Shown here in pieces: positions 3,913 to 38,805 of a DNA stretch of 41,536 nt (position 1 is the stretch's first letter; every line of letters starts with the position of its first letter). A program made the position numbers and the translations under genes. This DNA is from an uncultured Acidimicrobiia bacterium (GTDB taxonomy: Bacteria > Actinomycetota > Acidimicrobiia > Acidimicrobiales > CAIXPF01). A model generated the notes under the pieces. The model worked only from the letters and a program-made list of their open reading frames with translations, was not told where the DNA came from and did not search any database. The stretch covers positions 1 through 41,536 of the forward strand of contig CAIXPF010000197.1 of the NCBI GenBank assembly GCA_903921205.1, written 5' to 3'.

Positions 3913-3943
3913 AGCCGTGGATCTCCTTGCTCGGCGTCGGACA

Positions 3944-4160: not shown

Positions 4161-4173
4161 TACACTTCCGGTC
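4161..4173 (+). promoter_or_regulatory. cysC: Leaderless-type promoter of cysC
   Basis: TACACT (4161-4166) is a good actinobacterial -10 box and lies exactly 7 bp before the ATG at 4174. No Shine-Dalgarno sequence precedes the start. This spacing is typical of leaderless actinobacterial mRNAs, where transcription begins at the A of ATG. No convincing -35 is visible. Confidence 0.55.
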
Positions 4174-10050: not shown

Positions 10051-10133
10051 TCGATGCGGCGGCCTGAGCTGGGCCGATCGCCGTTCGCTGTCGACCGGCG
10101 GAGCCGGGCCAGATTTTTCGTTTCGACATGTGA

Positions 10134-10162
10134 TGACGAACGCTGTCCGGCCCCAGTAGGAT
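10134..10162 (+). promoter_or_regulatory. Candidate promoter of secreted protein copy B
   Basis: TGACGA (10134-10139) and TAGGAT (10157-10162) are separated by 17 bp and resemble a housekeeping actinobacterial promoter. Transcription would start near 10169 and give a leader of about 60 bases to the ATG at 10228. Confidence 0.5.
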
Positions 10163-10227
10163 CGATTGCATCGGCTCGGGGCGCGGCGGCGCGGCAGGTT
10201 GCCAACCGGGCGAAAGGCGGACATCCG

Positions 10228-16138: not shown

Positions 16139-16286
16139 GCCGGCGAAACCGGTTCCGTCCGTTCGGCGGCGGAAAAGGGGGTCGGATGGCCGATAGTCAC
16201 CGACCGTGTGAGCGGCGAGGCTGAGGGTCCATGGCACGGCGCGCACAGGAATCGGACGTCCGACCGGAGAGCGATCCCGGCACCAG

Positions 16287-16299
16287 TACCCTCACCGTC
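16287..16299 (+). promoter_or_regulatory. Leaderless-type promoter of GT4b
   Basis: TACCCT (16287-16292) lies exactly 7 bp before the ATG at 16300, the same geometry as at cysC. No ribosome-binding site is present. It marks an internal transcription start in the plus-strand run, within the 161-bp gap after ST3. Confidence 0.5.
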
Positions 16300-21992: not shown

Positions 21993-23188
21993 TGGCGCCG
22001 CGGCGTTGCCTGTGGCTGTCGGCCGAGCTGCCGGAGCGGCCCCGCAACGGCGGGCATGTCTACTCGCGCGGGCTGCGCGAGGGGCTCGCTGCGGCCGGGA
22101 TGCGGGTCGAGGTGATGGGCCTCGGCCCCGATGACGGCGACGAGGGCCCTGGCGTCATTCGGCGTGCCGTACCCGGCGGTATGCGCCCGTGGTTCGGCAG
22201 CGTCGTCTCGCCGCTCCCCAACCTCAGCTACATGCCGGCCACCTCGGCCTATCAGCTGTCCGTCGACGTGGCGCGACGCGAGGGCGGCTGGGACTTCGTG
22301 GTGGTCGACCATCTGCAGATGGCCTGGGTGCCGAAGCGGTGGCCCGAGCTCGGCCTGGCCCAGGGCGGTGTGCCGTTGGTGTTCGCCACCCAGAACCACG
22401 AGGAGAGCGTGCGCCTCGCGGTGGCGGCGGGTCAGTCGCGGCGCTCCCCGAAGGGTGTGATCCTGCGGGCGGATGCCCGTAAGGCGGTGGCGTCGGAGCG
22501 CCGGATGGTGGCTGCCGCCGACCTGGTGACCGCCATCACCGATGCCGACGCCGAGGCGTTCGCCTCCGGCTCACCCGGTACCCCGGTGGTGGTGCTGCCG
22601 CCCGGCTACGTCGATCCCCGGGTGATGCCGGTTCCTGCGGCGGCACGGTCGCGCCGGGTGGCGATCGTGGGCAGCTTCGACTGGCATGTGAAGGCCGCGA
22701 ACTTCCGTCAGTTCGTCCGAGCGGCCGACCCGGTCTTCGCCGCGGCAGGGATCCGGCTCAGCGTGGTCGGACGGGTGCCCGACGACGTCGCGGCCGAGCT
22801 CGGTCCGTTGCAGGCGACGGAGTTGCTGGGCTGGGTCGACGATCTCGCGGCGGTGCTGGGGGACTGTCGCGTCGCCGTCGTGTCCGAACCGGACGGCGGC
22901 GGGTTCAAGATGAAGGCGCTGGACTACCTGTTCCATCACGTGCCGCTGGCGGTGACCCGGGGCAGCGTCGAGGGAATCGACCTCGCGGACGGGCGGGCCG
23001 TGGCCCGGGCCGATGACGCCGAGGCGCTGGCCCGGGCCATCGTCGCCTGCATCGACGACACCGACCGTCTCGACGCGGTGGCCGCTCGGGCCTATCGCTG
23101 GGCCGTCGACCGCTTCGACTGGGCGGCCACCGGGCTGGCGCTGGCGCAGGCGGTCGAGGACCGGTTCCTGGCCCGCTCGACGGCCTGA
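21992..23188 (+). CDS. Glycosyltransferase, GT4-like (GT4c)
   Basis: This 398-residue GT-B protein starts CLWLSAELPERPRNGGHVYSRGLREGLAAAGMRVEVMG, the acceptor domain of GT4-type enzymes. FATQNHEESVRLAVA near 130-145 is the equivalent of the THNxES motif. The donor domain has VAIVGSFDWHVKAANFRQFV near 223 and GGGFKMKALDYLFHHVPLAVT near 303-325, as in Glyco_trans_1_4-type proteins. It is more divergent than GT4a and GT4b. Translation is coupled to GT2c by TGATG. It closes the glycosyltransferase block; the next genes encode exported proteins. Confidence 0.85.
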   Translation: MAPRRCLWLSAELPERPRNGGHVYSRGLREGLAAAGMRVEVMGLGPDDGDEGPGVIRRAVPGGMRPWFGSVVSPLPNLSYMPATSAYQLSVDVARREGGWDFVVVDHLQMAWVPKRWPELGLAQGGVPLVFATQNHEESVRLAVAAGQSRRSPKGVILRADARKAVASERRMVAAADLVTAITDADAEAFASGSPGTPVVVLPPGYVDPRVMPVPAAARSRRVAIVGSFDWHVKAANFRQFVRAADPVFAAAGIRLSVVGRVPDDVAAELGPLQATELLGWVDDLAAVLGDCRVAVVSEPDGGGFKMKALDYLFHHVPLAVTRGSVEGIDLADGRAVARADDAEALARAIVACIDDTDRLDAVAARAYRWAVDRFDWAATGLALAQAVEDRFLARSTA

Positions 23189-23408: not shown

Positions 23409-25115
23409 ATGGGTCATCCCGACGGTGGACACGTCGAGTCGAGTTCCGGCAGCTGGCTTCGGACCGCCGGAAGGCGGTCGGCACGGCTGCTGGCGGTGGC
23501 GCTGCTGGCCGCAGGGGCGATCCTGGTGCAGACCGTCGTGGCCAATGGCGAGGAGCTTCCGACCCGCGAGCAGCCGGCCGGAACGCTCGGGATGCGGGTG
23601 AGTGGCGGCAAGTTCAGCCGGGTCCGCTTCGATGCCGCCGAACGGTGGCTCGGCCGTCCGATCTCCTGGACGACGTTGTTCGCCGACCGGGCGTCGCCCA
23701 CGGCGATGGTCGCCTCGGTCTGGGGCGAGATGGTCAACCCGGCCGGATCGCTGCCGGAGTTGGCGCGCCGTCTCGACGTGGTCATGACCGTCCCGCTGGC
23801 GTTCGGCACGGGTTCGTCCCGGGACGAGGCCGGCCGCGCGGCGATCCGGGCCAAGCTGCAGGAGACCGCAGCAGGGGCCTGGGACGAGCAGTACCGGGCC
23901 GTGGCCCGCAACCTCGCGGTCGGCGGGTACGGCGATGCGGTGATCCGACTCGGTCACGAGATGACCGGACCGTTCTACCCCTGGTCGTCGCAGGGCAATG
24001 CGGACGCGTACATCGCGGCGTTCCGTCACGTGCACGACGTGATGGCCGAGGTCGGGCCACAGCTGCGTTTCGAGTGGAACGCCGCCCGCAACACGTTCGC
24101 CGAGTTCGGGCCGCCGTCCTATCCCGGAGACGCCTACGTGGACGTGATCGGCATCGACACGTACTACAACCCGTTGAAGGGCGACCCGGTACCGCTCTCC
24201 GAGGACGTGTGGAACCGCCGGTACCTCAAGGTGCTCAACGCCCACCTGGCTTTCGCCAAGTCGCACGGCAAGCCGGTGAGCTACGCCGAATGGGCCACCG
24301 GCGGCGTGGACGACCCGACCTACGTCCAGCGGATGCGCGGCTGGTTCGCCTCGCTGCCCAACGCCGGCCCTGGTCGGCTGCTCTACCAGTCCTACTGGAA
24401 CGTGACCAAGGACCACTACGACCTGGCGCAGTTGCCCCGCAACGCCATGGCGTTCCGGGCGGCCTTCGGTGCGGCCCGCCCGTCGGGCCCCCAGAGCTTC
24501 TTCGCCGTCGAGGACGACGGTACCGACCCCGCCGGGACCCGACCGCCGCCGACGTGGACGTCCTCGCCCGCATCGACCACCGTGCCGCCTGCGACCACGG
24601 TGCCGCCTGCGACCACCGTGCCGCCGGTGACCACGACGATCGTCGGGGGAGCGGGTCCCCGCATCCTGCTCGATGACGAGGTGAGCCACAGCACCGAGCG
24701 GACCGTGGAGGTCCCGCTGGCCGATCCGATCGACTGGACGGGTCCGGCTTCACTTCGTGACGCCTCCTTCCGGGTCGGTGCCGAGGTGACCGATCGGCGC
24801 TACGACGGTCCGGTCGACCTGCAGATCTGCTTCTGGCAGGACGACCGTGCGGCCCAGGCATGCGCCCGGCCGGTCCGGCTCGACGGTGCCGTCACCCAGG
24901 CCGAACTCGCCCCGACCAGCGACTGGTGGACCGGCGACGGTTGGCGGTGGGACCGCCCTGCGGAGACCATCCGGGTGCTGTTCAAGGATCCCGAGACGGG
25001 CACGTTGCTGAACGAGCAACGGTGTGGTTCGGCGTGCTTCAGCCGTGGGGACCTGCCGGCTGGGGTCCTGCTGAGCGCCCGTGTCTGGGTGGTGGCCACC
25101 CCGGCCGCAGGCTGA
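23409..25115 (+). CDS. Exported GH26-like glycoside hydrolase with C-terminal Trp/Cys-rich domain
   Basis: This 568-residue protein has an N-terminal basic region and a membrane or signal segment (27-46). A (beta/alpha)8 domain of GH26 type spans about 55-365, with likely acid/base Glu184 in RLGHEMTGPFYPW and likely nucleophile Glu294 in YAEWATGG; VDVIGIDTYYN is also typical. GH26 members cleave beta-mannans and some beta-1,3/1,4-glucans or xylans. A Thr/Pro linker (18-bp DNA repeat) leads to a domain at about 420-568 that matches the secreted proteins at 9175 and 10228 (LQICFWQD, AQACARP, IRVLFKDPETGTLL, CGSACF). AAAAAGGCGG precedes the ATG. It probably trims or releases the locus's own polysaccharide, a role known for glycosidases in other exopolysaccharide clusters. 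Degradation of foreign mannan is the alternative. Confidence 0.85.
   Translation: MGHPDGGHVESSSGSWLRTAGRRSARLLAVALLAAGAILVQTVVANGEELPTREQPAGTLGMRVSGGKFSRVRFDAAERWLGRPISWTTLFADRASPTAMVASVWGEMVNPAGSLPELARRLDVVMTVPLAFGTGSSRDEAGRAAIRAKLQETAAGAWDEQYRAVARNLAVGGYGDAVIRLGHEMTGPFYPWSSQGNADAYIAAFRHVHDVMAEVGPQLRFEWNAARNTFAEFGPPSYPGDAYVDVIGIDTYYNPLKGDPVPLSEDVWNRRYLKVLNAHLAFAKSHGKPVSYAEWATGGVDDPTYVQRMRGWFASLPNAGPGRLLYQSYWNVTKDHYDLAQLPRNAMAFRAAFGAARPSGPQSFFAVEDDGTDPAGTRPPPTWTSSPASTTVPPATTVPPATTVPPVTTTIVGGAGPRILLDDEVSHSTERTVEVPLADPIDWTGPASLRDASFRVGAEVTDRRYDGPVDLQICFWQDDRAAQACARPVRLDGAVTQAELAPTSDWWTGDGWRWDRPAETIRVLFKDPETGTLLNEQRCGSACFSRGDLPAGVLLSARVWVVATPAAG
24575..24628 (+). repeat. Three 18-bp repeats encoding a Thr/Pro linker
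   Basis: Units begin at 24575, 24593 and 24611 and each encodes TTVPPA or a near match. They form the flexible linker between the GH26-like domain and the C-terminal Trp/Cys-rich domain. Copy number is likely to vary between strains. Confidence 0.8.
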
Positions 25116-25207: not shown

Positions 25208-28200
25208 ATGCAGGCGGGCGGGCAGGCGATGCGGGAGCGGACTCGCGCGGGGATTGCGCGCAGGGGCGCGGTCCGGCGGTGGAGTGTTCGGGGTTCGGCG
25301 CTCGTCGTCGTCCTCGCCCTTGCCGTGGTGACCATGGCGACCGTGTCGGGTTCCCGTGCGGTCGACGCGGCCAGTGGCCCGGCGACCCTCGGGATGCGCA
25401 CGGCCGGCGGTTCGCCCACGGCGGAGCGCTTCGCTGCCGCCGAGGCCTGGTTGCGCCGTCCGCTGGCATGGACCGTGGCCATGACCGACCGGGACAGCCC
25501 GTCGGCCATGCGCAGCTCCACCTGGGCGCAGCTCGGACGGTCCGACGCGTTGCTGCCCCGCCTGGCGGACCGGCTCGACCTCGACCTGACCGTTCCGCTG
25601 GCGTTCGGCTCCGGCTCGGCCCGCGACAGTGACGGCCGGGCGGCGATCCGCGAGAAGTTGCTCGAGACCGCGTCCGGACGTTGGGACGCCGATTACGCCT
25701 TCGTGGCGGACATGCTCGCTGCGTCCGGCTACGGCGACGGCGTCGTCCGTCTCGGCCACGAGATGACCGGCCCGTTCTACCCGTGGTCCGCCCAGGGCAA
25801 TGGTGACGCCTACATCGCGGCCTTCCAGCACGTGCGCGACGTGATGCGGGCCGAGGCCCCGGGTCTGCGCTTCGAGTGGAATGCCGCCCGGAACACCTTC
25901 ATCGCCCACGGGCCCTCCGCCTATCCCGGGGACGACTACGTCGATGTGATCGGGCTCGACGTGTACTACGAGCCGACCAAGGGCGACCCGGTCCCGCTCG
26001 ACGACGCCGCATGGGCCCGGCGGTTCCAGCCGGTGCTGCAGGCCCACCTCGACTTCGCCGTGATGCACGGCAAGCCCGTCAGCTATGCCGAGTGGGCCAG
26101 CGGCGACATCGACGAGCCGCGCTTCGTCGAGCGGATGCACCAGTGGTTCACTGCCCTGCCTGCCGTCGGGCCGGGCCGGCTGCTGTACCAGTCCTACTTC
26201 AACGTGAACCGCTCGACCTACGACCTGGCGGGCTATCCCCGCTCGGCCTGGGCCTACCAGCGCCTCTTCGGGGTGGTCGCCGATGGCACGCCGATGTACA
26301 CCGGGACCGGGTCCGACGAGGTGCTGCACCTGTACCGCAGCGGTACCGAGATCGGGACGATGACCCTGGCGAGGGTGAGTTCCGCCGGAGACACCGTGGT
26401 CCGTCCCCGTGCCGCCGGGGTTGCCGGCGGGCCGGAACCTGCCGGGTTCCGTCTGGGTACGACCGAGCCGGTCCTGCTCGACCTGAGCACCACGGCGACG
26501 TACTCCGGTCCGATCTCGGTGTGCCTGCGCTTCGCCCCCGAGGGGTTCGACCCTGTGCAGACTCCCCAGATGCTGGCCGCCGACGGCACGACCGGAACCG
26601 GGGCGTGGGAGAACGTGACCCGTGCGCTCGACCGGGCCGGCGGCGTGGTGTGCGGGGCGCCGCCGAGCGTGGCGACGCTGGCGATCGGGACCGGCTTCGA
26701 CACCGCCCCGGATGCCGCCGACGTGGTCGCGTCGCTCGGCGAGGACACCGCAGCCGAACTGACCCTCCGGGCGACCGACCGCGACGGCGACGATGTCGTC
26801 TTCGAGGTCGGTGAGGCCTCCTCGGGCACGGTCGGGGTGCCGTCGCCGTCGACCTGCAGCGGCACCTATCCCCGGGTGTGCACCGCCACCGTGGCGTACC
26901 GGCCCGACGCCGACTTCTTCGGCGCCGACGGGTTCTCGGTGCGCGCCGGCGACGGCAGGGCGTGGTCGCACGCCGCACGGGTGTCGCTGCGTGTCGAGGC
27001 GAGCCCCGACCTGCCCCGGGCGAACGCCGGCGAGGTGCGCACCGCGGAGGACGCCGCTGCGGTGCTCTCCCTGTCCGGACGTGACCCCGACGGGGGGAGC
27101 CTGGCCATCGAGCTCGTGGACGGCCCGCAGCATGGATCGGTGGGGCTTGCCGTAGCGCCGTCGTGTCACACGGTGCTCGCCACGACCTGCACCGCCGAGG
27201 TGCGCTACGTCCCGGCTGCGGACTGGTCGGGGACCGATGCGTTCACCTGGGCGGCGCGCACGGTGACCGGTGCGGTGACCGCGTCCGTACCGGTGTTCGT
27301 CGAGCCGGTCAACGACGCACCGAGCTGTGCCGCGGTGACCCTCGGCGCCCCCGAGGACGGTGTGGGGGAGGTGCCGCTGCAGTGTGCCGACGTCGACGGC
27401 GATCCGCTGGGCTACCGGCTGGTGACGGATGCCGGGCACGGGTCACCGGCGATCGCCGGATCACAGCTGAGCTATCGGCCGCAGCCCGACTTCCACGGTG
27501 CCGATGCGTTCACCTATGCGGCCTTCGACGGGCTCGTCAGCTCGGTGCCGGCCACGGTGGGCGTCACCGTCGCCCCGGTGCAGGACGTCCCGCAGGCCGA
27601 CGATGTCCGGGCCACGGTCGTGGAGGACGTCGTGGGCCCCGTGGTGCTCGGGGGCACCGACGCCGATGGTGAGGCACTCGCCTTCGAGATCACCTCGCCG
27701 CCGACCCACGGCACGCTCGACCCGGTCGGCGCGCCGGGCTGCAGCGGGACCGGCCCGAGCGTGTGCCGGGCGTCGGTCCTCTACCGGCCGGAGGCGGGCT
27801 ACGACGGGCTCGACGCCTTCCGCTACCGGGTGAGCGACGGGATCGGCAGCTCGGAGGAGCGCACGGCGACGATCGAGGTCACCGCAGTGCTCGACCCGAC
27901 GACGCTCACGGCGGTGGTGCCGGCCGTCGATGCCGACGGCAACGGGTTCAGCACCGTCTCGGCCACGCTGGCCTCGCCCGATCCCACCTGTATCGCCGCC
28001 CAGTCGCTGCAGGTCGAGGCGTCCGCCGACGGCACCACCTGGACCGTGGTCGCCACCGCCCGTACCGGCGCCGACGGCCGGGCCGTGGCCGAGGTCGCAT
28101 TCGCACCCGGGGTGTTCGAGGTGCGGGTGCGTTTTCCGGGCAACGCCGGCTGCGCGGCAAGCCTCGACCGGTCCTCGCCGCTCGCCGTCGGCGTGCCGGG

Positions 28201-28699
28201 TGACCGCGTGCTCGGCGGCGGCTGGTACCGGTCGCCGCTGTCGTCGGTCGTGCGGGCCGGCTTCGGCGTCACCGTGCCGGGTCCGTCGGGTCTGCCGACT
28301 CCGGCGAGGTCCACCGCCACGTCCGGCGGTTCGCCCGGCGCGCTGCTGTGGATCCAGCCCGGCGTCCTCCGCCTGCGCAGTACGTCGATCGACACGGTCC
28401 GCCCGGCGCCGTCGTGCAACACGGCGCGCTATCGCCGCTGCACCGTGATCACCGGCAAGGCGCTGGTCTCCCGATGGCGGCCCGACGCAGCGGAACCGGA
28501 CGGCGGTACGTGGTCGGGCGGCACCGGTGTGGCCTTCACCGTCACCGTCGGCGACGGGGGCAGCGGCTCGAGCTGTGCCGGGGCCGTCTGCTCCCCGGTG
28601 GACCGACCGGACGGCTTCGCGGTGAGCGTGTCGCCCAAGCTGTTCAGCGGCCAGGGCACTCCGGCGATGCTGCTCGGCGGGTCGTTGTCGCTCGGCTGA
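25208..28699 (+). CDS. Exported GH26-like glycoside hydrolase with tandem cadherin/Ig-like repeats
   Basis: This 1163-residue protein has a basic start and a hydrophobic export segment (about 31-50). A GH26-like domain (about 57-365) clearly paralogous to that at 23409 has Glu185 in RLGHEMTGPFYPW and Glu295 in YAEWASGD as likely catalytic pair. A beta-rich linker region (370-495) and four cadherin/Big_9-like repeats follow (about 500-895), each with a DxDGD-type strand, a P-x-HG-type turn and a YRPxxxFxGxDxF-type strand. A fifth Ig-like unit (896-1000) and a C-terminal beta domain with several cysteines complete it. The Trp/Cys-rich domain of its neighbour is absent. Starts at 25208 and 25229 are both possible. 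The repeats probably hold the enzyme away from the cell surface; Asp-rich strands suggest calcium binding (inference). Confidence 0.85.
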   Translation: MQAGGQAMRERTRAGIARRGAVRRWSVRGSALVVVLALAVVTMATVSGSRAVDAASGPATLGMRTAGGSPTAERFAAAEAWLRRPLAWTVAMTDRDSPSAMRSSTWAQLGRSDALLPRLADRLDLDLTVPLAFGSGSARDSDGRAAIREKLLETASGRWDADYAFVADMLAASGYGDGVVRLGHEMTGPFYPWSAQGNGDAYIAAFQHVRDVMRAEAPGLRFEWNAARNTFIAHGPSAYPGDDYVDVIGLDVYYEPTKGDPVPLDDAAWARRFQPVLQAHLDFAVMHGKPVSYAEWASGDIDEPRFVERMHQWFTALPAVGPGRLLYQSYFNVNRSTYDLAGYPRSAWAYQRLFGVVADGTPMYTGTGSDEVLHLYRSGTEIGTMTLARVSSAGDTVVRPRAAGVAGGPEPAGFRLGTTEPVLLDLSTTATYSGPISVCLRFAPEGFDPVQTPQMLAADGTTGTGAWENVTRALDRAGGVVCGAPPSVATLAIGTGFDTAPDAADVVASLGEDTAAELTLRATDRDGDDVVFEVGEASSGTVGVPSPSTCSGTYPRVCTATVAYRPDADFFGADGFSVRAGDGRAWSHAARVSLRVEASPDLPRANAGEVRTAEDAAAVLSLSGRDPDGGSLAIELVDGPQHGSVGLAVAPSCHTVLATTCTAEVRYVPAADWSGTDAFTWAARTVTGAVTASVPVFVEPVNDAPSCAAVTLGAPEDGVGEVPLQCADVDGDPLGYRLVTDAGHGSPAIAGSQLSYRPQPDFHGADAFTYAAFDGLVSSVPATVGVTVAPVQDVPQADDVRATVVEDVVGPVVLGGTDADGEALAFEITSPPTHGTLDPVGAPGCSGTGPSVCRASVLYRPEAGYDGLDAFRYRVSDGIGSSEERTATIEVTAVLDPTTLTAVVPAVDADGNGFSTVSATLASPDPTCIAAQSLQVEASADGTTWTVVATARTGADGRAVAEVAFAPGVFEVRVRFPGNAGCAASLDRSSPLAVGVPGDRVLGGGWYRSPLSSVVRAGFGVTVPGPSGLPTPARSTATSGGSPGALLWIQPGVLRLRSTSIDTVRPAPSCNTARYRRCTVITGKALVSRWRPDAAEPDGGTWSGGTGVAFTVTVGDGGSGSSCAGAVCSPVDRPDGFAVSVSPKLFSGQGTPAMLLGGSLSLG
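26700..27890 (+). repeat. Four tandem cadherin/Ig-like repeats (protein level)
   Basis: Units of roughly 90-100 residues begin near 26700, 27010, 27310 and 27590. Each has an acidic first strand (GEDT, AEDA, PEDG, VEDV), a D-x-DGD- or DPDGG-type calcium-like loop and a Y-x-P-x-x-x-F/Y-x-G-x-D-x-F/FTY strand. They have diverged at DNA level, so this is an old repeat. Confidence 0.7.
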
Positions 28700-28953: not shown

Positions 28954-29931
28954 ATGCGAGTTCTCGTTGCAGGCGGTGGCGGTTTCATCGGCGGGCATCT
29001 GGTCCGCCGGCTCTTGGACGAGGGCCATGCGGTTCGTGCCATCGACCTCAAGCCGATGGACGAATGGTGGCAGGTCCACCCCGGCGCCGAGAGCCTCGAC
29101 CGGTTCGATCTGCGCCGTCTCGGCCCGTGTGAGGCCGCCGTCGACGGGGTCGACCACGTGTACAACCTCGCGGCCGACATGGGCGGCATGGGGTTCATCG
29201 AGAACAACAAGGCCGCCTGCATGCTCAGCGTGATGATCAACACGCACCTGCTCGAGACCTCGCTGGCGGCGAACGTGCAGCGGTTCTTCTACGCCAGCTC
29301 GGCCTGCGTGTACGCCGCCGAGCACCAGACCGATCCCAACGTCACCGCACTGCGCGAGCAGGACGCCTACCCGGCCCAGCCGGAGGACGGCTACGGCTGG
29401 GAGAAGCTGTTCTCCGAGCGGATGTGCCGTCACTTCCGTGAGGACTTCGGCCTCGAGACCCGGGTCGCCCGCTATCACAACGTGTACGGCCCCAACGGCA
29501 CCTGGAAGGGTGGCCGTGAGAAGGCTCCGGCGGCGATCTGCCGCAAGATCGCCATGGCCGAGCTGACCGGTGACACCGTGATCGACGTGTGGGGCGACGG
29601 GCACCAGACCCGCAGCTTCATGTTCGTCGACGACTGTGTCGAGGGCACCCGACGGTTGCTCGACTCCGACATCATCGAGCCGCTCAACGTCGGCTCGTCC
29701 GAGCTGGTCTCGATCAACCAGCTGGTCGACCTGGTGGCCGACATCGCCGGCATCAGCGTGACCCGTCGTCACGACCTCAGCGCGCCGCAGGGCGTGCGGG
29801 GCCGAAACAGCGACAACACGCTGATCCTGGAGAAGATGGGCTGGGAGCCCTCGATCAAGCTGCGTGACGGCCTGACCCGCACCTACGACTGGGTCCGGGC
29901 CCAGGTCCGGGCGGAGCTGGCCCGGGTCTGA
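28954..29931 (+). CDS. gme: GDP-mannose 3,5-epimerase
   Basis: This 325-residue SDR enzyme is strikingly close to plant GME, which turns GDP-D-mannose into GDP-L-galactose and GDP-L-gulose. It has the NAD-binding GGGGFIGGHL start, AADMGGMGFIE near 74-83, FFYASSACVY (C118), YGWEK (Y147, K151), the GME signature TWKGGREKAPAA with K190, WGDGHQTRSFMFVDDCVEG and GVRGRNSDN. From memory of the Arabidopsis enzyme, the catalytic residues Cys145, Tyr174, Lys178 and Lys217 all align with a constant offset of 27, strong support for the same chemistry. AGGAGG precedes the ATG and a perfect terminator follows the stop. It would feed L-galactose or L-gulose into the locus's polymer. A different NDP-sugar epimerase is possible but less likely. 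Confidence 0.9.
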   Translation: MRVLVAGGGGFIGGHLVRRLLDEGHAVRAIDLKPMDEWWQVHPGAESLDRFDLRRLGPCEAAVDGVDHVYNLAADMGGMGFIENNKAACMLSVMINTHLLETSLAANVQRFFYASSACVYAAEHQTDPNVTALREQDAYPAQPEDGYGWEKLFSERMCRHFREDFGLETRVARYHNVYGPNGTWKGGREKAPAAICRKIAMAELTGDTVIDVWGDGHQTRSFMFVDDCVEGTRRLLDSDIIEPLNVGSSELVSINQLVDLVADIAGISVTRRHDLSAPQGVRGRNSDNTLILEKMGWEPSIKLRDGLTRTYDWVRAQVRAELARV

Positions 29932-29972: not shown

Positions 29973-30008
29973 GAACACAGCCCGCCGGTTCTCCGGCGGG
30001 CTGTGTTC
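29973..30008 (+). terminator. Strong intrinsic terminator after the epimerase gene
   Basis: A perfect 16-bp stem (GAACACAGCCCGCCGG and its complement) closes a TTCT loop and is followed by TGTTT. It lies 41 bp after the epimerase stop and ends the upstream transcript before the giant surface-protein gene. Confidence 0.9.
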
Positions 30009-30412: not shown

Positions 30413-33400
30413 ATGGCGACATTTGCGACCAGACGGTCGGCGCTCCTGCGTCACCTGGGCATGGCGGGTCTGGTACTCGCGGTGCTCAGCCTGTCGCTGA
30501 TCACCGCAGCGGTGAAGAGCGAGCCGGCCGGCGCGGGCATCTACTTCAACGACGTCGAGTACACCTACAAGGAGTACTGGGCCAGCCACGCCTCCTTCAC
30601 CGCCGGCTGTGGTGAGCATGCGGTCTCCGGCAGCAGCTGGTACGTCGAGCCGCTGAACTGCGCGAAGTCGATCACCCTCACCATCCCCGACAACGTGCAG
30701 GGCGCGATCGCCGCGGTGCTCTACGTCGACCTGTGGCGCAACGGCACCGCCCGCTCGGCGCGCCTCAACATCAACAATGGCCCGGAGATCCGCCCCGAGC
30801 GGGGCAGCCAGGACAGCCGTGACCCGTACACCACGCCGATCCCGTTGACGCAGCTCCGGCAGGGGGCGAACACCATCACCCTGCAGGAGACCACCGGTGC
30901 CTATCACCTCCATGACCTGATGGTCCGGGTGTACTACAGCCCCACCCAGCCGCTCATCGCCGGGCCGGGCAGCGACGTCACGCCGCCGAGCGGGTCGCTC
31001 GATCTCATCAGCGCCGGCGGCACCAACCGCACCCCGGCCGAGGGCGGGACCCTCAACGTCGACAACAACCAGATCACGCTGTCCGCCAGCGCCAACGACG
31101 CGGCCTATGTCGAGTTCCACGGCTACTACGACGGCTTCGACGAGGACAACGACGGCCAGACCCGCGACTGGCACAACTTCACCCGGAACAACTGGGGCCC
31201 GGGTGGGACGCTGGCCAAGGCGACCGGTGCCACCATCGGCCACATCGGCACCGACAGCGTTGCCCCCTACCAGGTGACGTGGAACCTCCCCGAGGTCAAG
31301 AACCAGCCCGGGGTAAAGTTCAAGGTGCGCATCGTCGACAGCGCCGGCAACGTGCGCGAGGCCCCGGGTGGTGTCTCGGCGCCGTTCACGCTCGCCAGGT
31401 CCTATCTGGTGGAGAACTACACGATCCCGAACTTCGACGACGCCGGCATGTTCTTCAACGGCACGGCGCCGCAGCTCGCGACGCGGGCCATCACGTTGCC
31501 GTCCGATCTCAGCAACGTCAGCCGCGCGTACCTCCTGGGCAACTTCTGGGGGAACCCGGGCATCTCGCTCAACGACAACACCTACTTCCGGGCCTTCACG
31601 AACTCGGAGGACACCTGGCAGACCTCGAAGCGCGAGCTCGCCGTCAGCCAGTTGAAGCCCGGGGTCAACACCATCCGGTACAGCTTCGTGCCGCCGGGGT
31701 TCGGCCAGCTGATCGAGAAGCCCGGCCCGATGGTGGTCATCCACCGCACCGCGCCGGCCGGCTCGCCGGCCATCACCACCCAGCCGGTGGCGACGGTGGT
31801 CAGCCAGGGCCGTCAGGCGACCTTCACGGCCACCGCGTCGGGAGCGCCCGATCTTGCCTACCAGTGGCGCAAGAACGGGGTGGCGATCCCCGGGGCGACC
31901 GACCTCTCCTACACGACCCCGCCGTTGCAGCCCGCCGACAGCGGCAGCGCCTACAGCGTGGTGGTGACCAACGGGCTGGGCTCGGCGACCAGCAGCGCGG
32001 CCAAGGCGACCGTGCTGCCGACCGGTGTGGCCACCGGGCCGTGGTGGAACGCCGGCTGGGATTTCCGGGTGCCGGTGACGGTCTCGCCCGGTGACACCGC
32101 CCGTACGAACAAGATGGTCGAGGTCCTGCTCAACTTCACCGAGCTGATGCGTACCGCCGGGAGCGGCGGGCCGAGCTTCGATCCCAACTCGGTGCGGGTG
32201 GTCGAGGTCGACGGGTCGGGCAACGTGATCGACGCCGACGTGGCCCGCCAGGTCGACCCGGCCGAGGGCTACGACGCCGCGACCAACGCCAAGGCCAACG
32301 TCATCTTCCTGATGACCGGCACGACGAACCCCGAGACGTCGCGCACGTATCACATCTACTTCGACAAGACGAGCAAGAACATCCCCGCCCCGACGGTGGC
32401 GCCGCTCGTCACGGTGACCGACAACGTGGTCGACCGGGGATTCCCGGCCTACCAGTTCAACGGCCAGGGATCGACCTGGGTGTACCACAAGGAGGGCGGC
32501 GGCTTCGCCAAGCTGCTCGACGCCCAGGGTCTCGACTGGATCGACTGGACGCCGGCGACCGGTGCCGCGGGTGACTACCGCGGGGTGCCCAACGCCGTCA
32601 TGCCCGGCAACGGCGGGTTCTTCCACCCCGGTCGTGCCGGCGCCGGCACCTCGAGGATCGTGTCGAGCGGCCCGTTGAAGATCACCATCGAGACCGAGAG
32701 CTCCGACAAGCTCTGGGTCGCCCGCTGGGAGGTCTACCCGACCTACGCCACCTTCAGCATGGTGCGGGCGGCCAAGCTCTTCTGGTTCCTCTACGAGGCC
32801 GTACCCGGCGGTACGTTGGACTTCAACGGCAACGACGTCGTGGTCCGCTCCGACGGCGTGTCGGTGAACATGGACGGGACCTGGCACACCGACCTCCCGG
32901 GCCAGGAGTGGGCGTACGTCGGCGACAAGGCCAAGGGCCGCTCCTTCTACGTGGCGCACCACCAGGACGAGGGCTCGGTCGAGTCGTACTGGTTGCTCCA
33001 GAACCAGATGCCGGTGCTCGGCTTCGGCCGCGGTGGCAACGCCCTGAACGAGTCCTTCCTCGATCCGACGGTCAACGGCCAGCCGCAGACCTTCACGGTG
33101 GGCCTGGTCGACTCGACCGACTTCTCGGTCGCCGGCAACGGCATCCGGGCGGCCTACCGGCCGCTCGTGCTGCAGACCGGTGGCGCCGAGTTCAACGGGG
33201 TGTTCACCGGGCTGCGCAGCGACGACTTCTCCAGCGGGTCGCTGAACCCGATGTGGACCGTCTACGACCCTGCCGGCGACACCGCCGTCAGCACCACCGG
33301 CACCGATGTGCAGCTCGCCATTCCCGGCGTGGGCACCCATGACCTGTGGACCGGCCGGAACAAGGCCCCGCGCCTGCTCCAGGCCGTGTCCAACGGTGAC

Positions 33401-36400
33401 CTCGGGATCGAGGCCAAGTTCAACTCGAGCCCGACGCAGCGCTTCAGCGGCCATGGCCTGGTGTTCCAGGCAGATGCCAACAACCTGATCCGCTTCGGGG
33501 TCGAGAACACCGGCACGACGACGCGGGCGACGGCCACGGTCATGGTCAACGGCCAGGCGCAGATGCTGCAGGCCAAGTACCTCGAATCCGGTGTTCCGCA
33601 GTACCTGCGGGTGCTCCGTACCGGGAACTCGTGGGTGTTCGGTCGCTCCTTCGACGGCGTCAACTGGATCAGCCTGCCGCCGGTGACCTTCTCCCTGGTG
33701 GTGAGCACCGCCGGCGTCTATGCGCTGTCCCACGGCACCCCCGGCCCGGCCTACACCGCGTCGCTCGACTACATCGAGAACTACGCCCAGGCGCCCATCG
33801 TCGATGACGCACCGAAGATGAGCAATGTCGTCATCACGCCGAAGGCCCACCGGGCCGTGGTCTCGTGGACCACCAACGTGCCGGCCACGACCACGGTGCG
33901 GCACGGCTCGTCGGCGCTCGTCACGAAGAGCGCCGAGGACGTCACGCCAACGACCAACCACCAGGCCACGGTGGACTTCCTGGCCTGCAACACGCCCTAC
34001 TACCTCCAGCCGGTCTCCGCGGCGGGCGGGGTGACGACGGAGGGCACGGTCACCCTGTTCACCACGACGGCGTGTCCCGAGGCGTTCTCCGACGATTTCT
34101 CGGGGCCGGTGGCCGATCCACGATGGACGAGCGTCGACCCGCTCGGCGACACCATGACCGCCCGTACCGGGACGAACGCCCTGTTCTCGATCCCGGCGGC
34201 GGTCGATCACAACCTCTACGCCGGCGCCAACCGGGCCCCGCGTCTGCGCCAGGACGGTCCCGAGGGGGACTTCTCCGTCGAGGCCAAGTTCGATTCGGTG
34301 CTCACCGCCCGCTACCAGATGCAGGGCATCGCCGTGGAGCAGGATGCCGACTCGTTCCTGCGGGTGGAGATCCACCACGACGGCACGGGTCCCAAGGCCT
34401 ATGTCGTCGCCGTGATCGACGGGTTGGCCACCACGCTGCTCAACCCGGTGACCTTGCCGGCGAGCACCTCGCACCATCTGCGCCTCGCCCGTGTCGGCAA
34501 CGCCTGGACCGTGCGCCACTCGGTGAACGGCACCACGTGGAACACCGTCGGCACCTTCGACCTGTCGTTGCGTTCGACCTACCTGTCCCCGTACATCGGC
34601 ACCACGTCCACCGGTGGTGCGTCGACGCCGGCGTTCGTGGGGTCGATCGACTACTTCTTCAACACGGCGACCCCGATCGTGCCGGAGGACGGCGGTGCCG
34701 GCCCGGACACCACTGCGCCGGTCATGAGCAGCATCGTCGCCACCAGCAACCCGGCCAATCCCCAGGAGGTGACGGTCACCTGGACCTCGAACGAGCTCGC
34801 CTCGAGCCGGGTCGAGTGGGGTCTGACGACCGCCTACAGCCTGCCGGTGGTGACCGACAACACCGCCGTGCTCGCCCACAGCGCCAAGCTGTCGCCGATC
34901 TCCTGCGGCAAGACCTACAACTTCCGGGTCGTCGGCAACGACGCCGCCGCCAATACGGGTGCGAGCGCGAACCAGACCTTCGTCGGCCCGGCATGTCCGG
35001 CCGGGCCCGTGTCCGACGACTTCAGCTCGGCGACGCTCAACCAGCGCTGGCTGGTGGTGGACAAGGTCGGCGACGGCACGGTCACCCAGTCCGGTGGCCT
35101 GCTCAAGCTGAAGGTGCCGGCGGCGTCCCGCCACGATCTGGCCCCGACCAACAGCAAGGCGCTCCGGGTCGTCGAGGCGATCCCCAACGCCGACCTCTCC
35201 GTCGAGGTGGGTTTCGAGTCGGTCGTCAACCTGCCGACCCAGATCCAGGGTCTGATGTTCGAGGCCGACAACGGGAACACGGTCCGCTTCGACCTGTCCT
35301 CGACGGGGACCGAGACCAAGGCCTACGTCGGACGTCTGAACGCCAGTGGTCTGACGCAGCTGGCCTATGTCACGGTGCCGGGCTCGTCGGCGAGCCAGTT
35401 GCGGGTGTCCCGGGTCGGTTCGGTGTGGACGTTCCGGCATTCCACCGACGGCACCACCTACACCACGATCTACAGCGGTGACCTCGGTGCCTTCGCCCCG
35501 TCCCGGGTGGGTCCCTTCGCCGGCAACGCCAACGCGGTGCTCGGTTCCGTCCCGCCGCACACCGCGGTGGTGGACTACTTCTTCAACTCGGCGTCACCCA
35601 TCGTGCCCGAGGACGGTGGCGCCGTCGGCGCCCCCGAGTTCGAGCTGTTCAGCGGCTCGTCGATGAACTTCGGCACGGTCGGCCTGACCCAGCCTGACAT
35701 CAACATCATCGGCCGGGTGACCGACCCCGACGGGGTGTCGTCGCTGACCTACAGCCTCAACGGGGCTGCGCCGGTCGCCATGGGCGTCGGGCCCGACAGC
35801 CGGCGTCTGACCACGCCCGGCGAGTTCAACGCCGCCATCCCGGCTGCGGGTCTGCAGGCCGGCCTGAACACGGTGACCCTGCGGGCGGTGGATGCGTACT
35901 CGCACGCGGCGACGACGACGGTCGAGGTGAACTGGACGCCGGGCAACACGTGGCCGATCCCGTACAGCGTCGACTGGTCCAACACCACGAACCTGCTCGA
36001 CGTGGTACAGCCGATCGACGGCCAGTGGGCCATCGAGGGCGACACGGTGCACAACACCGAGGTCGGTTACGACCGCATCCTGACCCTCGGCGACGACACC
36101 TGGAAGTCCTTCGAGGTCACCGTGCCGATCACGGTCAACTCGGTCGATCCGGCCGGCAACGCCCCGCCCAACGGTGGACCGGCCATCGGCTTCATCCCTC
36201 ACTGGAAGGGCCACGTCGACGCCGACTTCAGCCAGCCCCACTGGGGTTTCGCCGGCCAGCTCGGCGGGTGTGTCTGGTATCGCTACAAGGCCGACGGCAT
36301 CAGCGAACGCTTCGAGATCCGCGACTCACAGGCGGTGCTGACCGCACAGGACCTCAGCGGCAAGACGCTGACGGCAGGGGTCACCTACCTGTTCAAGATG

Positions 36401-38719
36401 CGGGCCGAGTCCACGGTCGGCAACGGTCCGCTCTATCAGCTGAAGGTCTGGCCGGCGAGCGATCCCGAGCCGACGCGTTGGGACGTGACCAGCCAGCTGC
36501 CGCCGGGTGGGCCCGATTCGGGCTCCCTGGTCCTGGTGGCGCATTACGTCGACGCCAGCTTCGGTGACATCTCCGTGACCAAGCTGACCGCGGCCACGCC
36601 GACCATCAGCCCCGCCGGTGGCACCTTCGCCGGTCTGTCCAAGGTCACGCTGACCGCCGAGACCCCGGGTTCGGAGATTCGTTACACGCTCGATGGTTCC
36701 GCTCCCGGGCCGGATTCGATGCTGTACACCGAGCCGTTCTTCCTGTCCCAGTCCACGGTGGTGCGGTCCAAGGCGTTCAAGGTCGGCAACGAGCCGAGCG
36801 CCGAGCGTCAGGCCACCTTCACCATCACCGCTGCACCGAACCGGGTGACGGACTCCTTGCGGGCCCTGTACCAGTTCAACGAGGGCGCCGGGACGACGGC
36901 GTACGACAGCTCCGGGGTGAGCCCGGCCGCGAACCTGCGGATCGAGTCCGGCTCGGTGAGCTGGCTGCCCTCGGGGGCGTTGCGGGTGAACTCGCCCTCG
37001 GTCATCCGTACCGCCGGGGATGTCGGCAAGATCAGCTCGGCCGTCGCCACCAGCGGGGCCTACAGCTTCGAGGCCTGGGTCGAGCCCAAGGACCTCACGC
37101 AGGGCCCTGGTGCCCTGGTCGGCATCGGTCCGATCTCCGGGACCGAGCGCAATGCGTCGCTCGCCCAGAACGGTGTCGACTACCGATCGGTGCTGCGGAC
37201 CGGGATGACCGGGGTCAACGGGTCCGCGCAGAGCGCGCTGGCTGCGGTGCAGCAGTCGTTGCACCACGTGGTGTTCACCCGGGACGGCTCGGGCAACACC
37301 AAGATGTGGATCGATGGTGTGCAGGTGGCCGGCGGCACCCAACGCGGGGTGCTGACCAACTGGAGCACGGCGTTCCGGCTCGGGGTGGCCGGCATCCCGA
37401 ACGGTACGGAATCGTGGCTGGGTGACCTCTATCTCATGGCGGTGTACAGCCGACCGCTCACCCAGTCGCAGGTGCTGCAGAACTTCCGGGCCGGGCCCTT
37501 CCCGCCGGTGGCCAACACCGCACCGGTGGTGGATGCCGGGCCGGCCGTGTCGATCCCGGTCGGCCAGAACGTGCTGCTCGACGCCACGGTGAACGACGAC
37601 GGCTTCCCCAAGCCGCCGAACGCCACGTCCGTCACCTGGTCGAAGGTGTCGGGCCCGGGCACGGTGACCTTCGTGTCGCCGAACGCTGTGGACACGCAGG
37701 CCTCCTTCTCGGCGGCCGGCTCCTACGTGCTGCGGCTCACGGCCTCGGACGGGGCGCTGAGCAGCTCCGACACCGTCGCTGTCACGGCCACTGCAGCCAT
37801 CACGACCGTTCCGAGCCCGGTCATCACGCCGGCTGCGGGCACGTACTACGGCTCCGTCGCCGTGACGATCTCCAACAGCCTCAGCGGCGCGGAGATCCGC
37901 TACACGACCGACGGGTCGGCGGTGACCGACGCCTCGCCGCTGTACACCGCGCCGATCACCCTCACCACCTCGGCGGCGGTACGGGCGAAGGCCTACAAGA
38001 GCGGGCTCACCGAGTCGGCGCAGGTCAGCGCGGCGTACACGATCGCGGCGGTGCCGCCCCGGGTCACCGACGGCCTGGTGGCGTTCTACGACCTCGACGA
38101 GGGCACGGGGTCGACCATCAAGGACACGTCGGGGGTGGGGACGGCGCTCGATCTGACGGTGGCCGACCCGACCCGTACCTCGTGGGTCGCCGGCGGCCTC
38201 CGGTTCGACCAGGCCACCGTCGCCCTGTCGCCCGGCAGCGGTGCGAAGGTGACCGATGCGGTCAAGGCGTCGGGTGCGATGACCATCGAGGCATGGGTGA
38301 CCCCGGCGAACGTCACGCAGAGCGGCCCGGCGATGATCGTCAGCATGGCGGGCACCTCGGCCAGGAACTGGGCGCTGGGCCAGAACGGCTCGAGCTACTC
38401 GACCAAGTTCCGGACCAGTACCACGACGGCCGACGGCGAGGTGGCCACGGCCACCGCCGGCGCCGCCGCCACGCGCCAGCACGTCGTCTACACCCGGGAT
38501 GCAGCCGGTGCCGTGCGCGTCTACGTCAACGGTTCCCTGGTCACGTCGCGGGCCCTGGCCGGCAACCTGTCGAGCTGGGTGTCGACGCAACGGCTCTCCT
38601 TCGGCGCCGATCGTGACGGGACGAAGCCGTGGCTGGGAACGATCTTCACGGTCGGCATCTACAGCCGTGCCCTTTCGGCGACCGAGGTCGGTCAGAACTT
38701 TGCCGCTGGTGAGGCCTGA
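30413..38719 (+). CDS. Giant modular exported protein with Ig, DUF2341-like, concanavalin/LamG, fn3 and chitobiase-C-like modules
   Basis: This protein has 2768 residues. An export signal or membrane segment spans about 17-36. Reading on: an N-terminal beta region, an Ig-like domain (about 452-536, WRKNGVAIPGAT), a DUF2341-like module (from 544, WWNAGWDFRVPV), and then three copies of a concanavalin-like module starting DDFS (937, 1227, 1536). Two fn3-like domains separate these copies (about 1130-1220 and 1430-1533). Next are a beta domain, a fourth jelly-roll (1846-2059), a chitobiase/beta-hexosaminidase C-like domain (2061-2139), LamG (2143-2363), PKD/Ig (2368-2461), a second chitobiase-C-like domain (2466-2544) and a final LamG (2546-2768). 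No LPXTG sorting signal or C-terminal anchor is seen. No catalytic domain is recognised, so adhesion to, or organisation of, the extracellular glycan is the likeliest role. Confidence 0.85.
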   Translation: MATFATRRSALLRHLGMAGLVLAVLSLSLITAAVKSEPAGAGIYFNDVEYTYKEYWASHASFTAGCGEHAVSGSSWYVEPLNCAKSITLTIPDNVQGAIAAVLYVDLWRNGTARSARLNINNGPEIRPERGSQDSRDPYTTPIPLTQLRQGANTITLQETTGAYHLHDLMVRVYYSPTQPLIAGPGSDVTPPSGSLDLISAGGTNRTPAEGGTLNVDNNQITLSASANDAAYVEFHGYYDGFDEDNDGQTRDWHNFTRNNWGPGGTLAKATGATIGHIGTDSVAPYQVTWNLPEVKNQPGVKFKVRIVDSAGNVREAPGGVSAPFTLARSYLVENYTIPNFDDAGMFFNGTAPQLATRAITLPSDLSNVSRAYLLGNFWGNPGISLNDNTYFRAFTNSEDTWQTSKRELAVSQLKPGVNTIRYSFVPPGFGQLIEKPGPMVVIHRTAPAGSPAITTQPVATVVSQGRQATFTATASGAPDLAYQWRKNGVAIPGATDLSYTTPPLQPADSGSAYSVVVTNGLGSATSSAAKATVLPTGVATGPWWNAGWDFRVPVTVSPGDTARTNKMVEVLLNFTELMRTAGSGGPSFDPNSVRVVEVDGSGNVIDADVARQVDPAEGYDAATNAKANVIFLMTGTTNPETSRTYHIYFDKTSKNIPAPTVAPLVTVTDNVVDRGFPAYQFNGQGSTWVYHKEGGGFAKLLDAQGLDWIDWTPATGAAGDYRGVPNAVMPGNGGFFHPGRAGAGTSRIVSSGPLKITIETESSDKLWVARWEVYPTYATFSMVRAAKLFWFLYEAVPGGTLDFNGNDVVVRSDGVSVNMDGTWHTDLPGQEWAYVGDKAKGRSFYVAHHQDEGSVESYWLLQNQMPVLGFGRGGNALNESFLDPTVNGQPQTFTVGLVDSTDFSVAGNGIRAAYRPLVLQTGGAEFNGVFTGLRSDDFSSGSLNPMWTVYDPAGDTAVSTTGTDVQLAIPGVGTHDLWTGRNKAPRLLQAVSNGDLGIEAKFNSSPTQRFSGHGLVFQADANNLIRFGVENTGTTTRATATVMVNGQAQMLQAKYLESGVPQYLRVLRTGNSWVFGRSFDGVNWISLPPVTFSLVVSTAGVYALSHGTPGPAYTASLDYIENYAQAPIVDDAPKMSNVVITPKAHRAVVSWTTNVPATTTVRHGSSALVTKSAEDVTPTTNHQATVDFLACNTPYYLQPVSAAGGVTTEGTVTLFTTTACPEAFSDDFSGPVADPRWTSVDPLGDTMTARTGTNALFSIPAAVDHNLYAGANRAPRLRQDGPEGDFSVEAKFDSVLTARYQMQGIAVEQDADSFLRVEIHHDGTGPKAYVVAVIDGLATTLLNPVTLPASTSHHLRLARVGNAWTVRHSVNGTTWNTVGTFDLSLRSTYLSPYIGTTSTGGASTPAFVGSIDYFFNTATPIVPEDGGAGPDTTAPVMSSIVATSNPANPQEVTVTWTSNELASSRVEWGLTTAYSLPVVTDNTAVLAHSAKLSPISCGKTYNFRVVGNDAAANTGASANQTFVGPACPAGPVSDDFSSATLNQRWLVVDKVGDGTVTQSGGLLKLKVPAASRHDLAPTNSKALRVVEAIPNADLSVEVGFESVVNLPTQIQGLMFEADNGNTVRFDLSSTGTETKAYVGRLNASGLTQLAYVTVPGSSASQLRVSRVGSVWTFRHSTDGTTYTTIYSGDLGAFAPSRVGPFAGNANAVLGSVPPHTAVVDYFFNSASPIVPEDGGAVGAPEFELFSGSSMNFGTVGLTQPDINIIGRVTDPDGVSSLTYSLNGAAPVAMGVGPDSRRLTTPGEFNAAIPAAGLQAGLNTVTLRAVDAYSHAATTTVEVNWTPGNTWPIPYSVDWSNTTNLLDVVQPIDGQWAIEGDTVHNTEVGYDRILTLGDDTWKSFEVTVPITVNSVDPAGNAPPNGGPAIGFIPHWKGHVDADFSQPHWGFAGQLGGCVWYRYKADGISERFEIRDSQAVLTAQDLSGKTLTAGVTYLFKMRAESTVGNGPLYQLKVWPASDPEPTRWDVTSQLPPGGPDSGSLVLVAHYVDASFGDISVTKLTAATPTISPAGGTFAGLSKVTLTAETPGSEIRYTLDGSAPGPDSMLYTEPFFLSQSTVVRSKAFKVGNEPSAERQATFTITAAPNRVTDSLRALYQFNEGAGTTAYDSSGVSPAANLRIESGSVSWLPSGALRVNSPSVIRTAGDVGKISSAVATSGAYSFEAWVEPKDLTQGPGALVGIGPISGTERNASLAQNGVDYRSVLRTGMTGVNGSAQSALAAVQQSLHHVVFTRDGSGNTKMWIDGVQVAGGTQRGVLTNWSTAFRLGVAGIPNGTESWLGDLYLMAVYSRPLTQSQVLQNFRAGPFPPVANTAPVVDAGPAVSIPVGQNVLLDATVNDDGFPKPPNATSVTWSKVSGPGTVTFVSPNAVDTQASFSAAGSYVLRLTASDGALSSSDTVAVTATAAITTVPSPVITPAAGTYYGSVAVTISNSLSGAEIRYTTDGSAVTDASPLYTAPITLTTSAAVRAKAYKSGLTESAQVSAAYTIAAVPPRVTDGLVAFYDLDEGTGSTIKDTSGVGTALDLTVADPTRTSWVAGGLRFDQATVALSPGSGAKVTDAVKASGAMTIEAWVTPANVTQSGPAMIVSMAGTSARNWALGQNGSSYSTKFRTSTTTADGEVATATAGAAATRQHVVYTRDAAGAVRVYVNGSLVTSRALAGNLSSWVSTQRLSFGADRDGTKPWLGTIFTVGIYSRALSATEVGQNFAAGEA
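33221..35620 (+). repeat. Triplicated concanavalin-like/fn3 module inside the giant gene
   Basis: Units start near 33221, 34091 and 35020. Each begins DDFS, continues with a W-T/L-V strand, a D-P/K-x-GDxxx strand and a RAPRLxQ/KALRVVE strand, and closes with SxDYxxNxAxPIV (the second and third with IVPEDGG). Fn3-like domains lie between them. The DNA has diverged, so recombination between copies is not obvious. Confidence 0.75.
36595..38719 (+). repeat. Duplicated chitobiase-C-like plus LamG pair in the giant gene
   Basis: The pair at about 36595-37500 recurs at about 37810-38719. Shared marks are TISPAGGTF versus VITPAAGTY, EIRYTLDGSAP versus EIRYTTDGSAV, ALYQFNEGAGTTAYDSSGV versus AFYDLDEGTGSTIKDTSGV, and MAVYSRPLTQSQVLQNFRAG versus VGIYSRALSATEVGQNFAAG. 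A PKD-like domain lies between them. Confidence 0.8.
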
Positions 38720-38805
38720 CGGCACCGGTGACCCGCAGCCCGGTCCGATCGGACCGAGCTGTGCGGCCACGTGTGTCGGGGGACGACCCGGGGCGCCATC
38801 CGAAC

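What the first reader, a model, noticed from the sequence alone, without database searches (positions are those of the whole stretch)
28954..29931. Plant-like GDP-mannose 3,5-epimerase inside a sulfation locus
The protein keeps the GME signature TWKGGREKAPAA and catalytic Cys118, Tyr147, Lys151 and Lys190, all at a constant offset from the plant residues as I recall them. GME is best known from plant ascorbate synthesis. Here it would supply GDP-L-galactose or GDP-L-gulose. With four sulfotransferases this suggests a polymer with sulfated L-galactose, chemically like algal galactans.
Basis: partly seen in the sequence, partly recalled or inferred. Interest (0 to 1): 0.75.

Follow-up and report, generated by a model that had tools for sequence, protein, structure and literature searches.

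The report
L-sugar enzyme in sulfated polysaccharide locus
An actinobacterium of the order Acidimicrobiales carries a bacterial version of the plant enzyme that makes activated L-galactose, built into a conserved gene cluster for a sulfated sugar polymer; the enzyme family is already known in bacteria, but its repeated pairing with sulfation genes appears unreported.

Summary
"Plant-like" misleads: bacterial GMEs are abundant, one was characterised in 2019, and this one nests among Acidimicrobiales sequences. The sulfation context is real: four sulfotransferases, a dedicated CysD and CysN-CysC, Wzx, Wzy, Wzz-like proteins, six glycosyltransferases and two GH26 hydrolases. The locus, with GME in the same place, is conserved in two congeneric genomes. 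It recurs rearranged in an Acidimicrobiales MAG, where GME is the best-conserved protein tested (72% versus 43-62%). Three other lineages of the order also have GME near sulfotransferases. Most likely GME feeds GDP-L-galactose (or GDP-L-gulose) to a Wzx/Wzy-assembled sulfated exopolysaccharide. Which L-sugar, and whether it is the sulfated residue, is untested. "Like algal galactans" is unsupported: nothing indicates a galactan, and GH26 is mainly a beta-mannanase family. The closest known locus is Actinoplanes wps-1 (2026), whose paper mentions no epimerase. Verdict: an ordinary enzyme in a new, conserved variant of a sulfated-polysaccharide locus.

The parts
28954..29931 (+). [quoted passage not shown] Ser116, Cys118, Tyr147, Lys151, Lys190, Arg220, Arg284
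29974..30007 (+). rho-independent terminator-like hairpin right after GME (stem of about 15-16 bp, loop UUCU)
   Evidence: sequence; MFE -38.6 kcal/mol, z -7.25
1960..4539 (-). Wzz/BY-kinase-like polysaccharide co-polymerase
   Evidence: PF02706 Wzz, PF13807 GNVR, ParA/CbiA
4778..6874 (-). CysN-CysC fusion (sulfate adenylyltransferase large subunit + APS kinase): PAPS supply
   Evidence: PF00009, PF22594, PF01583
6715..7653 (-). CysD (sulfate adenylyltransferase small subunit); a second CysD (53% identical) lies elsewhere in the genome
   Evidence: (PF01507)
7873..9099 (+). GT4 glycosyltransferase
10054..10857 (+). secreted-looking protein of unknown family; about 120 residues related to the C-terminus of the first GH26 protein
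11015..11974 (+). sulfotransferase 1 (PF13469)
11979..12602 (+). sulfotransferase 2 (PF03567)
12614..14215 (+). Wzx-type flippase
   Evidence: PF13440, E 4e-74
14212..15150 (+). GT2 glycosyltransferase
15143..16138 (+). sulfotransferase 3 (PF13469, weak by Pfam alone)
16231..17523 (+). GT4 glycosyltransferase
17535..18977 (+). Wzy polymerase (PF04932)
18830..20008 (+). GT2 glycosyltransferase (true start probably about 19060)
19947..20954 (+). sulfotransferase 4 (PF13469)
21096..21992 (+). GT2 glycosyltransferase
21992..23188 (+). GT4 glycosyltransferase
23409..25115 (+). secreted GH26 hydrolase; motifs GHEMTGPFYPW and SYAEWA (candidate catalytic Glu) retained
25208..28699 (+). second GH26 hydrolase with cadherin/Ig-like repeats
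30413..38719 (+). 2768-aa secreted multidomain lectin-like protein (LamG, DUF1349, PKD, CHB_HEX_C)
38728..40296 (+). second Wzz/ParA-like co-polymerase

Best explanation
The gene encodes a bacterial GDP-mannose 3,5-epimerase. By homology it oxidises GDP-D-mannose at C4 with bound NAD+ (Tyr147/Lys151/Ser116), deprotonates and reprotonates C5 and C3 with the Cys118/Lys190 pair (Cys activated by Arg284), and reduces C4 again, giving mainly GDP-L-galactose with some GDP-L-gulose and GDP-D-altrose. The L-hexose is then built by the locus's GT2/GT4 transferases into a repeat unit, sulfated in the cytoplasm by the four sulfotransferases with PAPS from CysD/CysN-CysC, flipped by Wzx, polymerised by Wzy under Wzz-like control, and trimmed or organised outside by the GH26 and LamG proteins. 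Shown here: gene, residues, locus content, conserved synteny. Inferred: catalysis, flux of the product into this polymer, identity of the L-sugar, and which residue is sulfated.
For: Full-length homology to plant GME (E about 1e-105 against 1e-28 for the next family) and a complete active site including the residues that separate GME from GDP-fucose synthase: Lys190 base and Arg284, where the synthase has His and Lys (PMC8787198). A bacterial GME about 50% identical to the Arabidopsis enzyme is proven active (PMC6678494). The whole locus, GME included, is collinear in congeneric G007 and G009 (over the stretch held for G007, whose contig starts at sulfotransferase 2) and recurs rearranged in MAG IP29b_bin.150 with all four sulfotransferases; GME is the best conserved protein there (72% against 43-62%) and about the most conserved in G009 (92%; CysD 94%). 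Sulfotransferases 2 and 3 were found in only 3 of 395 class genomes, the three that share this locus, while GME was found in 19. GME lies near sulfotransferases in 5 of 18 Acidimicrobiales loci against 0.5 expected. GDP-mannose supply is plausible: mannose-1-P guanylyltransferase-like and Gmd genes elsewhere in the genome. Elsewhere in bacteria GME's neighbours are mostly glycosyltransferases.
Against: GME lies between two secreted-protein genes, about 5.8 kb past the last glycosyltransferase, with its own 254-bp upstream gap and terminator, so it is probably its own transcription unit and could also serve other glycans. No GT in the locus can be assigned to GDP-L-galactose. Relative amounts of L-Gal, L-Gul and D-Alt cannot be read from sequence; BlmG-type enzymes are proposed to make L-gulose. 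Most GME-bearing relatives have no sulfotransferase nearby, so GME is not tied to sulfation. The three congeneric genomes count as one evolutionary event. The genome also has a second GME-like gene.
Confidence: 0.72

Rival explanations
1. GME serves a different product (another surface glycan or a small glycosylated metabolite, as with L-gulose in bleomycin or L-galactofuranose in A201A) and only sits beside the sulfation locus.
For: It has its own upstream gap and terminator; bacterial GMEs are implicated in antibiotic pathways (PMC6678494); carbamoyltransferases flank some bacterial GMEs.
Against: Its place is kept in three congeneric genomes and the gene stays with the same sulfotransferases, GTs, GH26 and LamG genes in a rearranged locus of a different MAG. 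No secondary-metabolite genes were found in the window.
Confidence: 0.15
2. The enzyme mainly acts as a single epimerase and supplies GDP-L-gulose (C5) or GDP-D-altrose (C3), so the polymer holds that sugar rather than L-galactose.
For: Characterised GMEs release all three products (PMC8787198); BlmG, a GME homologue, is proposed to make NDP-L-gulose (PMC6678494).
Against: L-galactose is the main product of the plant and Methylacidiphilum enzymes, and every residue of their mechanism is present here.
Confidence: 0.2
3. Misannotated GDP-L-fucose synthase or 4-epimerase rather than a GME.
For: NCBIfam's best hit is GDP-L-fucose synthase (E 5e-36), but 125 bits against a cut-off of 500; NCBIfam listed no GME model.
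Against: Base is Lys190, not the synthase's His; the Cys-activating residue is Arg284, not Lys; match to GME is about 75 orders of magnitude better in E-value.
Confidence: 0.03

Closest known systems
Methylacidiphilum fumariolicum GDP-mannose 3,5-epimerase (MfGM35E; PMC6678494)
   Same: Bacterial GME, about 50% identical to Arabidopsis GME; same Ser/Cys/Tyr/Lys/Lys/Arg set.
   Different: Its neighbourhood was read as LPS synthesis; sulfotransferases were not mentioned in the parts read. Its sequence could not be aligned here.
Arabidopsis thaliana GME (2c54/2c59/2c5a/2c5e)
   Same: 48.7% identity, identical TWKGGREKAPAA motif, all catalytic residues.
   Different: Plant enzyme of ascorbate and cell-wall synthesis; the window protein does not group with plants.
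Actinoplanes missouriensis wps-1 cluster (PMC13390465, 2026)
   Same: Actinobacterial Wzx/Wzy locus with sulfotransferases of different families, GH26, Wzz-like protein and an adjacent sulfate adenylyltransferase/APS kinase gene.
   Different: Two rather than four sulfotransferases, one GH26, GT26 and methyltransferase present; the paper does not mention an epimerase. Its sequences were not compared here.
Synechan (xss) cluster of Synechocystis 6803 (PMC8205485)
   Same: Wzx/Wzy-type sulfated exopolysaccharide locus with two sulfotransferases and eight GTs.
   Different: Product is rhamnose:mannose:galactose:glucose:sulfate; the paper mentions no epimerase.
BlmG (bleomycin) and the GME of A201A biosynthesis
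   Same: Bacterial GME-like enzymes supplying L-gulose or L-galactose (as described in PMC6678494).
   Different: Antibiotic pathways, not polymers; sequences not compared here.

Membership tests
GDP-mannose 3,5-epimerase (GM35E) | Full-length homology to characterised GMEs, better than to other NDP-sugar SDRs | tested here: met
   E 8e-105 and 2e-102 against 2e-28 for the next family
GDP-mannose 3,5-epimerase (GM35E) | GxxGxxG/A NAD motif and Ser...YxxxK triad | tested here: met
   G7, G10, G13; Ser116, Tyr147, Lys151
GDP-mannose 3,5-epimerase (GM35E) | Cys-Lys acid/base pair and Cys-activating Arg (separates it from GDP-fucose synthase) | tested here: met
   Cys118, Lys190, Arg284, invariant in 103/103; criteria from PMC8787198
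[quoted passage not shown]
   needs purified enzyme
GDP-L-fucose synthase | His as catalytic base and Lys activating the Cys; NCBIfam equivalog cut-off | tested here: not met
   Lys190, Arg284; 124.7 of 500 bits
Wzx/Wzy sulfated-exopolysaccharide locus (xss / wps-1 type) | Wzx, Wzy, Wzz-like, several GTs and sulfotransferases in one cluster | tested here: met
Wzx/Wzy sulfated-exopolysaccharide locus (xss / wps-1 type) | PAPS supply linked to the cluster | tested here: met
   CysD and CysN-CysC at 4778-7653; second CysD elsewhere
Wzx/Wzy sulfated-exopolysaccharide locus (xss / wps-1 type) | A sulfated polymer is actually made | not testable with these tools
   needs chemistry on cells
Algal-type sulfated L-galactan | Galactan backbone with sulfated L-galactose | tested here: inconclusive
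   no galactan-specific gene identified; GT specificities unknown; GH26 hints at beta-mannosyl or beta-glucosyl linkages

The most novel reading that the evidence does not exclude
Acidimicrobiales make a sulfated exopolysaccharide whose sulfated residue is L-galactose (or L-gulose) derived from GME: a bacterial route, independent of algae and animals, to sulfated L-galactose polymers, recurring in several lineages of the order.
Probability: 0.28. Interest if true: 0.65.

Novelty: new variant of a known kind. Interest (0 to 1): 0.45.

Why it matters
Sulfated polysaccharides were described as essentially cyanobacterial among bacteria (PMC8205485), with a 2026 genetic hint in Actinoplanes whose chemistry is unproven (PMC13390465). 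This locus gives a second, larger actinobacterial example with a dedicated sulfate-activation pair and adds a defined sugar prediction, an L-hexose from GDP-mannose, that composition analysis can check. It also strengthens the case that the sulfate adenylyltransferase/APS kinase gene beside wps-1, which those authors did not link to sulfation, supplies PAPS for the polymer.

Tried and rejected
Plant origin or plant affinity: rejected, as the tree places the protein with Acidimicrobiales and plants join only a long-branched second clade, flagged as a possible artefact. GDP-fucose synthase: rejected on residues and scores. The K of TWKGGREKAPAA as a plant marker: rejected, 8 of 103. General GME-sulfotransferase linkage across bacteria: not seen in 74 loci outside the set treated as Acidimicrobiales (local profiles built mainly from Acidimicrobiales sulfotransferases, so some may be missed), and no sulfotransferase family is among the 25 commonest at GME's immediate neighbours (only 25 of 114 families shown). 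GDP-mannose supply by the bifunctional ManC family TIGR01479: no match over cut-off; an Rv3264c-type homologue was found instead, itself under its model's cut-off. Structure prediction was not run: at 49% identity to solved structures the fold is not in doubt.

Full report
OBSERVATION. The ORF at 28954-29931 (+) is real: 325 aa, coding-like composition, ribosome site just upstream, and a strong terminator hairpin about 43 bases after the stop (29974-30007; MFE -38.6 kcal/mol, z -7.25). By sequence it is a GDP-mannose 3,5-epimerase: plant GMEs match at E 8e-105 and 2e-102, and the next family, GDP-L-fucose synthase, only at 2e-28. Aligned with Arabidopsis GME and about a hundred bacterial sequences, the Arabidopsis residues S143, C145, Y174, K178, K217, R243 and R306 are window S116, C118, Y147, K151, K190, R220 and R284, invariant in 103 of 103 rows; N203 is N176.

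NOT PLANT-LIKE IN ORIGIN. In an ML tree the window protein groups with congeneric copies and then an Acidimicrobiales MAG. [quoted passage not shown] PMC8787198) are those found here. The enzyme is therefore a new member of a known bacterial family.

ORGANISM. L068, titled 'uncultured Acidimicrobiales bacterium', lies in genome G006 with a GME match at C13:4195-5148 (502.8 bits); the same contig position and score appear for G353, listed as 'same order' as the window. I infer the order Acidimicrobiales.

LOCUS. From 1960 to 40296 the window holds: Wzz/BY-kinase-like protein, CysN-CysC and CysD (all minus strand), then GT4, a secreted protein, two sulfotransferases (PF13469, PF03567), Wzx, GT2, sulfotransferase, GT4, Wzy, GT2, sulfotransferase, GT2, GT4, two secreted GH26 proteins, GME, a 2768-aa LamG/DUF1349/PKD protein and a second Wzz-like protein. 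All four sulfotransferases have candidate PAPS-binding motifs. A second CysD (53%) elsewhere suggests that the window copy is dedicated to sulfation. Both GH26 proteins keep the HE and SYAEW motifs where the catalytic glutamates lie (catalytic assignment from general knowledge of GH26).

DOES GME BELONG TO IT? In congeneric G007 and G009 the locus is collinear with GME in the same place; in G009, GME is 92% identical against 81-88% for sulfotransferases, 74-84% for GTs and 67% for Wzy. In MAG IP29b_bin.150 (G001) the locus is rearranged but keeps all four sulfotransferases, Wzx, Wzy, GTs, GH26, LamG and GME; GME is best conserved (72% against 43-62%). That MAG has at least two further sulfotransferases and a CDP-glucose/epimerase/C-methyltransferase set near GME, so its polymer probably differs. 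Sulfotransferases 2 and 3 were found in 3 of 395 class genomes, exactly those with this locus, while GME occurs in 19. Further GME-sulfotransferase neighbourhoods occur in G020 (GME flanked by three sulfotransferases), G301 and G081. Counting one locus per lineage, 5 of 18 have a sulfotransferase nearby against 0.54 expected from genomic density (P about 1.5e-4). This test shows co-location but does not separate a specific GME-sulfation link from a general tendency of glycan genes to cluster; the 5 positives include the window's own genus, and the density counts PF13469 only. Among 74 other loci none was found, with the stated limits of the local profiles. The immediate neighbours of GME in those loci are mainly GT26, GT4 and GT2 glycosyltransferases and GDP-mannose dehydratase-like genes: GME is a general supplier for bacterial glycans, and in Acidimicrobiales some of these are sulfated.

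MECHANISM. Best reading: GDP-mannose (mannose-1-P guanylyltransferase-like gene on contig C22) is converted by GME to GDP-L-galactose with GDP-L-gulose and GDP-D-altrose as minor products; one of the locus GTs uses the L-sugar; sulfotransferases act on the lipid-linked repeat or its sugars with locally made PAPS; Wzx/Wzy assemble and export the polymer; GH26 and LamG proteins act outside. Catalysis, choice of L-sugar, the GT that uses it and the sulfated residue are inferred. The comparison with algal galactans is not supported; GH26 points, weakly, to beta-mannosyl or beta-glucosyl linkages.

KNOWN SYSTEMS. The nearest described locus is wps-1 of Actinoplanes missouriensis (PMC13390465, 2026): Wzx/Wzy, two sulfotransferase families, GH26 and an adjacent sulfate adenylyltransferase/APS kinase gene needed for sporangia, with no epimerase mentioned. 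Those authors knew of no characterised Wzx/Wzy cluster with GH26. The synechan cluster is the proven bacterial sulfated EPS (PMC8205485). Full-text searches of the open library found no report of GME or GDP-L-galactose in a bacterial sulfated exopolysaccharide; subscription papers are not covered.

VERDICT. Observation confirmed; interpretation partly supported; the enzyme is a known kind, and the GME-bearing sulfated-EPS locus is a new variant of a known kind. Interest 0.45.

Noticed in passing
G000 contig C122:26683-27612 (L089:9675-10628): Second GME-like gene in the same genome, about 49% identical to the window GME and 44% to Arabidopsis, in a separate clade seen in five genomes of the order; catalytic residues intact but nearby positions changed (At Q241->A, F245->Y, S308->F, D309->S). 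Its neighbours are SDR, ADH, MaoC, nitroreductase and roadblock/GTPase-type genes, not glycan genes; function unclear.
   Followed up: partly
L113:7880-12096 (G020): GME directly flanked by three sulfotransferase genes (PF13469/PF00685) in another family of the order, with GT4 genes, a sugar transferase and a GHL15 hydrolase nearby.
   Followed up: partly
window 10054-10857 and 23409-25115: The secreted 10054-10857 protein shares a domain of about 120 aa with the C-terminus of the first GH26 protein (25% identity, E 3e-13); no Pfam match.
   Followed up: partly
window 30413-38719: 2768-aa secreted LamG/DUF1349/PKD/CHB_HEX_C protein conserved with the locus in the three related genomes examined; possibly a polymer-binding surface protein.
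   Followed up: no
bacterial GME loci outside Acidimicrobiales: Commonest immediate neighbour of bacterial GME is a WecG/TagA/CpsF (GT26) glycosyltransferase (22 of 140 neighbours), suggesting that a GT26 enzyme may use the GME product; carbamoyltransferases flank four.
   Followed up: partly
G001:C41 (L093:13912-18806): Glucose-1-phosphate cytidylyltransferase, NDP-sugar epimerase and C-methyltransferase genes beside GME in the related MAG locus, suggesting an additional branched or deoxy sugar in its polymer.
   Followed up: no
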